This document shows, piece after piece, positions 12,629 to 60,322 of a DNA stretch of 64,000 bases. The position numbers and the translations under genes were made by a program. The DNA is from Alphaproteobacteria bacterium. GTDB taxonomy: Bacteria > Pseudomonadota > Alphaproteobacteria > UBA7985 > JAUIBT01. The notes beneath the pieces are model-generated. The model was not told where the DNA came from, searched no databases, and saw nothing but the letters and a program-made list of their open reading frames with translations. Location of the stretch: NCBI GenBank assembly GCA_030428255.1, contig JAUIBT010000007.1, positions 62,001 through 126,000 of the forward strand. Reading direction: 5' to 3'. Within the stretch, counting starts at the first letter, position 1. Every line of letters starts with the position of its first letter.

Positions 12629-12750
12629 CTTAGAGCATATTTGGTTGATTTGCTTTCACACAATACGCTTTAACTATATGATTTTAAAGTAAATGCACCT
12701 TGCGAACCCTTGGCGCGATCGAGGGCGATTGCTCGGGCTATGCGCTAGCG
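12629..12750. repeat. Dispersed intergenic repeat, long copy A
   Basis: This element of about 120 bp aligns along its length with the reverse complement of 59590-59696. Shared blocks include TTAGAGCAT/CTAGAGCAT at one end, a central TAACTATNTGATTTTAAAG and AAATGCACCTT, and GCGATTGCTCGGGCT at the other end. Copy A carries about a dozen extra bases (GCGAACCCTTGGC) after the AAATGCACCTT block. Its right end contains the CTAG that gives betA its TAG stop. Several internal arms can pair. It resembles rhizobial RIME-like intergenic elements in style, but no family is assigned. Confidence 0.8.
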
Positions 12751-30661: not shown

Positions 30662-31894
30662 ATGGCTCGCGTGGTTATGAAATTCGGCGGCACCTCAGTC
30701 GCGAATTTAGAGCGTATTCACAACGTGGCGCGCTTGGTCAAAGAGCAAGTGGACAAGGGCGATCAGGTCGCCGTGGTGGTGTCGGCCATGTCGGGCGAGA
30801 CCAACCGCTTGGTCGCCTTGTGCGAAGAGGCCAACACGCTCTTTGACCCCCAAGAATACGACACGGTGGTCTCAACGGGCGAGCAAGTCACCGTTGGTTT
30901 GCTGGCGATCGTCCTGCAGAAGATGGGGCTGAACGCGCGCTCTTGGCTGGGCTGGCAAATGCCCTTCGTCACCAGCCGCCACCATAGCCGTGCGCAGATT
31001 GAGGAGATCGACGGCAGCGATATCGTGGCAGGGCTGGAACGCGGCCAGGTGGCTGTGTGTGCGGGCTTCCAGGGCGTGACGCCCGACAGCCGTATTTCGA
31101 CGCTGGGACGCGGCGGTTCGGATACCTCAGCAGTGGCGCTGGCCATCGCGGTTCAAGCTGACCTGTGCGACATCTATACCGACGTCGACGGGGTCTATAC
31201 CACCGACCCGCGCGTTGTGCCGCGAGCGCGCAAAATCGACCGCATTTCGCACGAAGAAATGCTGGAGCTGGCCTCTTTGGGTGCCAAGGTCTTGCAGACC
31301 CGCTCGGTCTCTTTGGCGGCGCGTTATGACATGCCGCTGCGTGTGCTGTCCTCTCTGGAGTCCAAGCCCGGAACTACCGTTTGTAAGGAAGAAGATATCA
31401 TGGAAACCAAAGTTGTTTCAGGCGTTGCCTTCAGTCGTGACGAAGCCAAGATCACCCTGGTTGATATTCCAGACCGTCCGGGTGTAGCCAGCGCGATCTT
31501 CAACGCCCTGGGTGCTATCAACGTCGATATGATCGTCCAATCGCGCACCGAAAAGGACGACACCACCGACATGACCTTTACCGTCAGCCGAGCCGACTTC
31601 TCGCGCGCGCAAGACCAACTGATCGCCGCCGCTGATGAGATTGGCTATGAGCTGATGGACACCGACAACAAGGTCTGCAAGGTGTCAATCGTCGGCACGG
31701 GCATGAAGTCGGCAACCGGGGTTGCGCAAACCATGTTCCGCGAACTGGCTGCCAAGGGCATCAACATCCAGGTCATCTCGACTTCAGAGATCAAGATTTC
31801 GGTCTTGGTTGCTGAAGAGTATCTGGAGTTGGCGGTTCGCTCGCTGCACACTGCTTTTGCGCTGGACTCTGAAGAGGCTGACGCGGCGGAATAA
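30662..31894 (+). CDS. lysC: Aspartate kinase
   Basis: A 410-residue monofunctional aspartokinase catalysing the first step to lysine, threonine and methionine. The start MARVVMKFGGTSVANLERIH contains the kinase Lys/Gly motif. TLGRGGSDTSAVALA and DIYTDVDGVYTTDPR are the nucleotide and aspartate sites. Two C-terminal ACT domains (from about residue 265) give allosteric control by lysine and threonine. A longer frame upstream overlaps the ubiG promoter and is not needed. The opposite-strand ubiG start is about 150 bp away. Confidence 0.96.
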   Translation: MARVVMKFGGTSVANLERIHNVARLVKEQVDKGDQVAVVVSAMSGETNRLVALCEEANTLFDPQEYDTVVSTGEQVTVGLLAIVLQKMGLNARSWLGWQMPFVTSRHHSRAQIEEIDGSDIVAGLERGQVAVCAGFQGVTPDSRISTLGRGGSDTSAVALAIAVQADLCDIYTDVDGVYTTDPRVVPRARKIDRISHEEMLELASLGAKVLQTRSVSLAARYDMPLRVLSSLESKPGTTVCKEEDIMETKVVSGVAFSRDEAKITLVDIPDRPGVASAIFNALGAINVDMIVQSRTEKDDTTDMTFTVSRADFSRAQDQLIAAADEIGYELMDTDNKVCKVSIVGTGMKSATGVAQTMFRELAAKGINIQVISTSEIKISVLVAEEYLELAVRSLHTAFALDSEEADAAE

Positions 31895-31907
31895 GCCCGC
31901 GACGACT

Positions 31908-31948
31908 TTGGCACAATCCAGGGCGATTGCTCGGGCTCTGCGTTAGCG
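31908..31948. repeat. Dispersed repeat, half copy C
   Basis: This 41-bp segment is identical at 36 of 41 positions to the right end of copy A (12710-12750). It keeps the GGGCGATTGCTCGGGCT core and ends in GTTAGCG where copy A has GCTAGCG. It lies between convergent lysC and an FG-GAP protein gene and contains that gene's TAA stop. The other half of the element is missing. Confidence 0.8.
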
Positions 31949-58558: not shown

Positions 58559-59593
58559 ATGAACGAGGCGCGCACCCGACCTGACACGCTGATCTTACAA
58601 GCTGCGCTGGAACTGTGGGGCCTGCAAGACAGCAGCCCTGTGTTGATCGCTGAGCGTGAGAACCAAGTTTTTCGGGTCGATGCCCCTAAGGCTGACACGG
58701 TTCACGAGGCCAGTAGGACAGACATAAACAAGGGCCTGCGCTACGCCCTGCGGTTTCATCGCCCTGGCTATCGCAAGACCAGCGAACTGCTGAGCGAATT
58801 GACTTGGACGCGGGCCTTGGCCGACCGTGGTATGGCGGTCGCTGAGGCGGTCACGAGTCGATCTGGCCGCCTGATAGAGGAGGTGGCGGGCTGGCAAGTT
58901 GATCTGCTGACCTGGCTTGACGGTGCGCCCATGGGCCAGAGCTACCAGCCGCTCCCTTATCCAGACAGCAGCGCGATCTATCGCGACCTTGGCCGGACCA
59001 TGGCGCGCTTGCACGTCATTAGCGACGACTGGCAGCCGCCCGAAGGGTTTGAGCGCTGGGCCTGGGATTGCGACGGCCTGCTGGGCGAACAACCGCTGTG
59101 GGGTCGATTCTGGGATAATCCGCGCCTTGATCCCGCAGATCGCTCCCTGATGCTCAGCTTTCGCGAGCAAGCGCAAAGCGCGCTGGCAGCGGCGGGCGCG
59201 CAGCTCGACTACGGCTTGATCCATGCCGATTTGGTGCGTGAGAATGTCATGCTGGCGGGGCAGGGACGCGAACGACGGCTCAGCCTGATCGATTTTGACG
59301 ACGGCGGCTATGGCTATCGGTTGTTTGAGATCGCCACGGCCCTGTTGAAGGTCCAGGCAGAGCCCAACTTTGCCTCAAATAAGCAAGCGCTGCTTGAAGG
59401 CTATGCCGAAGTAAGGAGGTTGGATTTAGGCCTCTTGTCATTGTTTATGGCCCTGCGCGCGGTGACTTACCTGGGTTGGATCGTGCCGCGCCTTAGCGAA
59501 CAGGGCGCGGACCAGCGTCAGGCGCGCTTTGTGAAGACTGCGCGGTCCGCCATTTTGGCCTACCTTGAGCAGGCCCATCTACCAGGCCGCTAG
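58559..59593 (+). CDS. APH/choline-kinase-like phosphotransferase
   Basis: A 344-residue protein-kinase-fold phosphotransferase. The catalytic Brenner loop GLIHADLVRENVML (HxDxxxxN) and the metal-binding LIDFDDGGYGYRLFEIA are intact. An N-lobe with a Lys-poor ALRFHRPGYR strand precedes it. This layout fits hydroxylysine kinase and its bacterial relatives (APH family). It is probably the partner of the preceding phospho-lyase-like enzyme: phosphorylate an amino alcohol, then eliminate phosphate. Homoserine kinase II and aminoglycoside kinases are more distant options. The TAG stop lies in the left CTAG of a dispersed repeat. Confidence 0.78.
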   Translation: MNEARTRPDTLILQAALELWGLQDSSPVLIAERENQVFRVDAPKADTVHEASRTDINKGLRYALRFHRPGYRKTSELLSELTWTRALADRGMAVAEAVTSRSGRLIEEVAGWQVDLLTWLDGAPMGQSYQPLPYPDSSAIYRDLGRTMARLHVISDDWQPPEGFERWAWDCDGLLGEQPLWGRFWDNPRLDPADRSLMLSFREQAQSALAAAGAQLDYGLIHADLVRENVMLAGQGRERRLSLIDFDDGGYGYRLFEIATALLKVQAEPNFASNKQALLEGYAEVRRLDLGLLSLFMALRAVTYLGWIVPRLSEQGADQRQARFVKTARSAILAYLEQAHLPGR

Positions 59594-59696
59594 AGCAAAG
59601 CCCGAGCAATCGCTCTCGATTGTGAAGGTGCATTTGCTTTAAAATCAAATAGTTAGAGCGCGTTGAGTGAATGCAAGCCAACGATACATGCTCTAG
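59590..59696. repeat. Dispersed intergenic repeat, long copy B
   Basis: This 107-bp element is bounded by CTAGAGC at the left (59590) and GCTCTAG at the right, followed by AGCG. It aligns with copy A in inverted orientation. Internally TAGAGC-CGTTG and CAACG-GCTCTA form a long hairpin, ATTTG-CTTTAAAAT-CAAAT a second, and GAGC-AATC-GCTC a third. Because CTAG is a palindrome, its TAG is the stop of the kinase gene on one side and of the convergent SCO gene on the other. Confidence 0.9.
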
Positions 59697-60322
59697 AGCG
59701 TTTGCTTTAAGAAGTCGGCCAAGCCTGCGACGCCGTCTGCTTCTGAGAAGTGTTTAAGATATTCGCCGTTCGGCGCCATGAGATAGAGTAAGGAGGTGTG
59801 ATCCATCAAGTAGTCGCTCGAATCGTCGCGCTCTGACTTTGCGTAGTAAATGCGGTAGGCCTTGGCGGCCGCCTTAGTCTGCTCGATGGTGCCGGTCAAA
59901 CCGATGAGCTTGGGGTGAAACAAGCTCACGTAACCCTCCAGGGCCTCGACCGTATCCCGCTCGGGGTCGAAGGTGATGAAAAGCGGTTGAACCTTGGCGA
60001 GTTGGGCCTCGTCAAGCTGGCCCAGGGCTTGGGTCATGATCCCCAGCGCCGACGGGCAGACATCGGGGCAATAGGTGTAGCCAAAATAGATCAGGCTGTA
60101 TTTTCCCAAGAAATCAGTATGACTGCGGACTTGGCCGGTGTGATCGACAAGAGTAAAGGGGCCGCCGATCAAGCTGGTTCCGCTGCTGGTATCTTGGCGG
60201 GTTTGCGGGCTGTTGGGGGCCAGGCCCAAGGTGACCACCACACCCAGAAAAACGGCAACACATCCCAATGCTGCCAGCCATAGGAGCGCGCGGGGAGAAG
60301 AGAAGACACTTTTCATGATCAT
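59693..60322 (-). CDS. SCO1/SenC family copper chaperone
   Basis: A 209-residue protein with an N-terminal membrane anchor (about residues 12-34) and a thioredoxin-like domain facing the periplasm. The copper ligands are the CxxxC in YCPDVCPSALG and the His in YLMDHTSLLYL. It helps assemble the CuA centre of cytochrome c oxidase. The start at 60322 (MIMKSVF) is chosen; the next Met is two codons inside. Its stop lies in the CTAG end of the dispersed repeat. No oxidase gene is adjacent. Confidence 0.92.
   Translation of the reverse strand: MIMKSVFSSPRALLWLAALGCVAVFLGVVVTLGLAPNSPQTRQDTSSGTSLIGGPFTLVDHTGQVRSHTDFLGKYSLIYFGYTYCPDVCPSALGIMTQALGQLDEAQLAKVQPLFITFDPERDTVEALEGYVSLFHPKLIGLTGTIEQTKAAAKAYRIYYAKSERDDSSDYLMDHTSLLYLMAPNGEYLKHFSEADGVAGLADFLKQTL

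What the first reader, a model, noticed from the sequence alone, without database searches (positions are those of the whole stretch)
59590..59696. Repeat element whose CTAG ends supply the stop codons of both flanking convergent genes
Seen: a 107-bp element starts and ends with CTAG. The TAG of the left CTAG is the stop of the kinase gene (plus strand) and the TAG of the right CTAG, read on the minus strand, is the stop of the SCO gene. The inside can fold into three hairpins (TAGAGC-CGTTG/CAACG-GCTCTA and others). Inference: insertion with a palindromic CTAG target would create a stop on both strands in any frame that reads TAG there, letting the element land harmlessly at gene ends and act as a bidirectional 3' end.
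Basis: partly seen in the sequence, partly recalled or inferred. Interest (0 to 1): 0.72.

Follow-up and report, generated by a model that had tools for sequence, protein, structure and literature searches.

The report
Mini-transposon that rebuilds stop codons
The 107-bp sequence is one of dozens of copies of a small jumping DNA repeat that inserts at short TA-centred sites, often inside the stop codon of a gene, and whose own first base rebuilds a stop codon so that the gene is not harmed; such repeats are a known kind, but I found no earlier description of this stop-rebuilding rule.

Summary
Observation confirmed: 59590-59696 starts and ends with CTAG, and both TAGs are the stop codons of the flanking convergent genes. 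It is a dispersed repeat: 74 copies in its own genome, 71 and 19 in two same-genus genomes, and related families with the same layout (left arm, A-rich linker, 44-bp right palindrome) in another alphaproteobacterial family. Of 88 full-length copies, 44 carry a gene's stop codon exactly in an end, three in both. Flanks show target YTAR. At nuoN-coaX, relatives lack the element and end nuoN with TAA; here the stop is TAG, and a second TA plus the old A lie at the far end. So TA is duplicated and the element's terminal G...C rebuilds TAG on either strand. A null model (YTAR sites outside coding sequence) predicts about 34 stop hits against 43 seen, so target preference plus selection largely suffices. 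The proposed bidirectional 3'-end function is not supported: no intrinsic terminator in the element, a native terminator beyond it at one site, one copy inside an operon, no covariation. Closest kinds: CIR, Bru-RS, RIME, RUP, MITEPsy1. A known kind of mobile element with an elegant insertion rule.

The parts
59590..59696 (+). Element copy (short 107-bp form, lacks the 13-nt CCAAAGGTTCGCA-like segment of most copies)
59590..59593 (+). Left YTAR site CTAG; TAG is the stop codon of the kinase gene
59591..59652 (+). Left arm TAGAGCAAAGCCCGAGCAATCG...ATTTGC plus A-rich linker
   Evidence: homologous left arm in G159
59653..59696 (+). Right arm, 44-bp imperfect palindrome TTAGAGC...GCTCTAG
59693..59696 (-). 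Right YTAR site CTAG; TAG on the minus strand is the stop codon of the SCO1/SenC gene
58559..59593 (+). APH-type phosphotransferase (kinase) gene, convergent neighbour
59693..60322 (-). SCO1/SenC gene, convergent neighbour; orthologues in G001/G002 end at the same residue with TGA
12631..12748 (-). Second full-length copy in the window; its left-end TAG is the stop of the neighbouring gene; a native terminator lies beyond it
31890..31945 (-). Partial copy (left arm only); its end CTAA is the stop of the neighbouring gene

Best explanation
A non-autonomous mobile repeat (MITE-like) of about 104-119 bp with two arms and an A-rich linker. An IS transposase acting in trans inserts it at YTAR sites and duplicates the central TA. 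Because the element proper begins with G and ends with C, every insertion reads Y-TA-G...C-TA-R. Insertion into the TA of a stop codon TAA or TAG therefore regenerates TAG for the upstream gene, on either strand, and insertion into a YTAR shared by two tail-to-tail genes regenerates both stops, as in the window. Copies that hit coding sequence are lost, so the survivors lie downstream of genes and about half lie exactly on stop codons. Shown: repeat family, YTAR logo, TA duplication and TAA-to-TAG change at nuoN, stop positions. Inferred: the transposase (IS630-type is the best candidate), and that the window site was a 4-nt CTAG overlap of two genes before insertion.
For: Copies. Strict stop coincidence in 44 of 88 full copies (35 left ends, 12 right ends, 3 both). 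YTAR logo at both ends. nuoN-coaX: G001 and G002 have GGC-TAA, a short gap, then ATG; G000 reads GGC-TAG[element]TAA-ggagacgcggct-ATG. L011 and L030 likewise have A at the far end where a relative has TAA. HtpG stop: C-TAG in both relatives, two CTAGs here. Null model: about 50% of convergent and 34% of tandem YTAR sites outside coding sequence are on stops against 28/44 and 15/34 seen. Homologous two-arm families with stops at ends in G159. IS630 in the own genome with termini CTAGAGCGTTTTCC at a CTAG target with TA duplicated; its end matches the G159 right arm at 18 of 23 positions beyond NTAGAGC.
Against: No pair of strains differing only by this insertion was available; the kinase and SCO genes are not neighbours in either relative, so the window's own empty site is not seen. 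The terminal inverted repeat of the element is only about 6 bp and its match to the IS630 end is weak (11 of 23; not significant by gapped alignment). In the main family the left end is on stops more often than the right (35 to 13, p 0.002), which a symmetric insertion rule does not explain; sibling families do not share the bias (9 to 13, and 6 to 4).
Confidence: 0.85

Rival explanations
1. The element is kept as a bidirectional transcription terminator or 3' processing site between convergent genes, and was selected for there.
For: Half of full-length copies lie between convergent genes (44 of 88); the window copy is the whole intergenic region; the single strand folds well.
Against: No intrinsic terminator in 87 of 88 copies on either strand (one weak terminator-like pattern inside the window copy on the minus strand). 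A native hairpin-plus-T terminator remains beyond the element at L011, and relatives of L030 have one. One copy sits inside nuoN-coaX. No covariation. Convergent enrichment is usual for small mobile repeats such as RUP (PMC3049150).
Confidence: 0.1
2. The transposition machinery actively seeks stop codons or gene 3' ends.
For: 43 on-stop copies against about 34 expected (z about 2.2); left-end orientation bias in the main family; 8 of 11 copies on stops in G159.
Against: The excess is small and the null ignores selection against insertion near promoters and ribosome-binding sites; flanks beyond YTAR show no preference; orientation bias absent in sibling families.
Confidence: 0.08
3. The CTAG ends are part of the element, and the stops arise because insertion truncates reading frames.
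For: Some relatives run further (L009 by 38-56 aa, L022 by 15-21, L023 by 4, L170 by 4-8).
Against: For most tested genes (L001R, L003R, L005L, L008R, L010L, L011L, L024L/R, L030R) at least one relative stops at the same residue; genes rarely run into the element (1 of 62 and 1 of 66).
Confidence: 0.1

Closest known systems
CIR sequences of Caulobacter and Brucella (methyltransferase-site-associated intergenic repeats; PMC2229807)
   Same: Alphaproteobacteria, about 110 bp, two independent stem arms joined by a linker, TA at termini, intergenic, many copies
   Different: CIR carry a conserved GANTC; here only 10 of 88 copies have any GANTC. Target duplication of CIR was listed as unknown; here TA is inferred from empty sites
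Bru-RS1/Bru-RS2 of Brucella (103-106 bp; PMC10800456, PMC3163539)
   Same: Size, palindromic, intergenic, alphaproteobacterial
   Different: Sequence not held, so homology not tested; stop-codon rule not described in the passages read
RIME1 of Rhizobium (108 bp, two palindromes; from memory)
   Same: Size and two-palindrome layout
   Different: Sequence not held; recalled, not tested
RUP of Streptococcus pneumoniae (107 bp; PMC3049150, PMC2229807)
   Same: 107 bp, TA target, proposed IS630-type mobiliser, enriched between convergent genes
   Different: Firmicute; terminal repeats paired with one another in one duplex; no sequence relation known
MITEPsy1 of Pseudomonas syringae (PMC3189936)
   Same: 100 nt, inserts at CTAG or YTAA
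   Different: 18-bp inverted repeats, IS5-like, 4-nt duplication reported
IS711 of Brucella (PMC3163539)
   Same: Insertion at YTAR with TA duplication
   Different: Autonomous 842-bp IS; ends not compared

Membership tests
MITE (miniature inverted-repeat transposable element) | Short, non-coding, many dispersed copies | tested here: met
   104-119 bp, 74/71/19 copies
MITE (miniature inverted-repeat transposable element) | Target-site duplication | tested here: met
   TA in YTAR; nuoN-coaX, L011, L030, htpG
MITE (miniature inverted-repeat transposable element) | Terminal inverted repeats shared with a resident IS | tested here: inconclusive
   About 6 bp TAGAGC/GCTCTA; weak match to resident IS630 ends for this subfamily, strong for the G159 family
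CIR (Caulobacter/Brucella) | About 110 bp, two arms plus linker, TA termini | tested here: met
   compared with PMC2229807
CIR (Caulobacter/Brucella) | Conserved GANTC methylation site | tested here: not met
   10 of 88 copies, below the 34% expected by shuffling
Bru-RS / RIME | Sequence homology | not testable with these tools
   Reference sequences not held; searches of plasmid records with the G159 and G063 family consensus gave no match
Intrinsic terminator | GC stem followed by T run | tested here: not met
   1 of 88 copies per strand

The most novel reading that the evidence does not exclude
A class-wide superfamily of alphaproteobacterial two-arm elements has terminal bases G...C and a YTAR target that together make insertion into TAA or TAG stop codons silent on both strands: a built-in safe-landing adaptation that lets the elements accumulate at gene ends and shifts stop usage to TAG.
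Probability: 0.3. Interest if true: 0.62.

Novelty: new member of a known kind. Interest (0 to 1): 0.42.

Why it matters
It gives a simple rule for why small repeats pile up exactly at gene ends: the target sequence overlaps stop codons and the element's own first base restores them. It supplies a target duplication for a layout (CIR-like) whose mobility was listed as unknown, and it predicts TAA-to-TAG changes that can be counted in any alphaproteobacterial genome.

Tried and rejected
Conserved RNA structure: RNAalifold none, no covariation. Rfam: no match. Intrinsic terminator in the element: not found. Methylation site GANTC: not conserved. Annotated plasmid records: no match. Autonomous parent with the same two ends: not found; IS630 at C39 and an IS5-type IS at C31 (termini GGGCCTGTGGAC, TA flanks) follow the same target rule but neither has both ends of the element. 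Orthologous shared copies: one clear case (L161/L239) and one possible (L163/L207) between G000 and G001, so most copies seen are lineage-specific. Gene calls rest on a home-made codon-usage caller, as no gene finder was at hand; the null sample comes from the window and the fetched loci, not the whole genome.

Full report
Observation. The 107-bp stretch 59590-59696 begins and ends with CTAG. The kinase gene (58559-59593, +, PF01636) ends in the TAG of the left CTAG, and the SCO1/SenC gene (minus strand, PF02630) ends in the TAG of the right CTAG. The strand folds into two arms (z -3.0), not three separate hairpins.

Repeat family. blastn finds 44 matches in the own genome, itself included, and a profile finds 74, with 71 and 19 in the two same-genus genomes. 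Fifty-eight other genomes of the order and class gave no blastn match. The consensus is about 119 bp; the window copy is a short form without a 13-nt segment. Three copies carry about 103 nt extra between the arms.

Position. Of 88 full-length copies, 44 lie between convergent genes, 34 between tandem and 3 between divergent genes; the rest are at contig or locus edges. Of 62 genes facing the left end, 35 have the stop codon exactly in the end; of 66 facing the right end, 12; three copies have both.

Insertion rule. Flanking bases are C or T before TAG and G or A after CTA, with no further preference: the target is YTAR. The cleanest empty site is nuoN-coaX (genes named). In G001 and G002 nuoN ends GGC-TAA, followed after a short gap by coaX with no element. 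In the own genome nuoN ends GGC-TAG with the element, and the far end reads TAA-ggagacgcggct-ATG. TA is thus duplicated, the old third base A is left at the far end, and the element's first base makes the new stop. L011 and L030 show the same far-end A where a relative has TAA, and htpG ends C-TAG in both relatives. Most tested orthologues stop at the same residue, so most genes were not truncated.

Is the stop coincidence special? Among YTAR sites outside coding sequence, about half in convergent regions and a third in tandem regions already lie on stop codons. This predicts about 34 on-stop copies against 43 seen. Target preference plus loss of harmful insertions explains most of it.

Wider family. 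Palindromes YTAGAGC...GCTCTAR exceed their control in several alphaproteobacterial genomes. In G002 they are the right arm of a sibling family with a 104-bp unit, and in G159, from another family of the class, of a roughly 104-bp element with a recognisable left arm. The own-genus profile hits the G159 copies over nearly their whole length (E down to 6e-8 in 32 kb) and the interior alignment scores z 7.2. Stops fall on element ends in 20 of 43 copies of the sibling family and 8 of 11 G159 copies, with both ends in two each: the window's configuration recurs.

Mobiliser. The own genome holds one IS630-type IS, with CTAGAGCGTTTTCC ends and TA duplicated at CTAG. Its end matches a G159 right arm at 18 of 23 positions beyond NTAGAGC (0 of 5000 shuffles) but the own subfamily only weakly (11 of 23). 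An IS630-type transposase is the best candidate, not proven.

3'-end function. No intrinsic terminator in the element, a native terminator beyond it at L011, and one copy in an operon speak against it. Rho-dependent ends or RNA processing are not excluded.

Known relatives. The layout matches CIR (PMC2229807), but the defining GANTC is absent. Bru-RS and RIME could not be compared by sequence. RUP (PMC3049150), MITEPsy1 (PMC3189936) and IS711 (PMC3163539) share the target rule or the distribution.

Noticed in passing
L038:2256-2492 and L029 (reverse strand, about 1861-2124): Tandem arrays of the left arm alone (GCAAACCCCGAGCAATCG...GGTGGATTTGCG, about 45-56 bp units) downstream of genes.
   Followed up: no
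L364 (G002:C102:2701-3055): Four tandem copies of the sibling element at about 104-bp spacing between convergent genes.
   Followed up: no
L031, L034, L040 (G000 C47, C52, C32): Long form of the element with about 103 nt of conserved extra sequence between left and right arms.
   Followed up: partly
L271:94-1147 (G000:C39): IS630-type IS with its transposase split over two frames (possibly frameshifting), next to a gene that by eye looks like a phage tail-sheath gene.
   Followed up: partly
own-genus copies: Left end sits on stops nearly three times as often as the right end in the main family, not in the sibling families; unexplained.
   Followed up: partly
L257 (G001 htpG 3' end): The htpG stop codon that carries the element in the own genome carries a CTAG-ended 44-bp palindrome of the sibling type in G001: apparently independent insertions at the same stop.
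   Followed up: no
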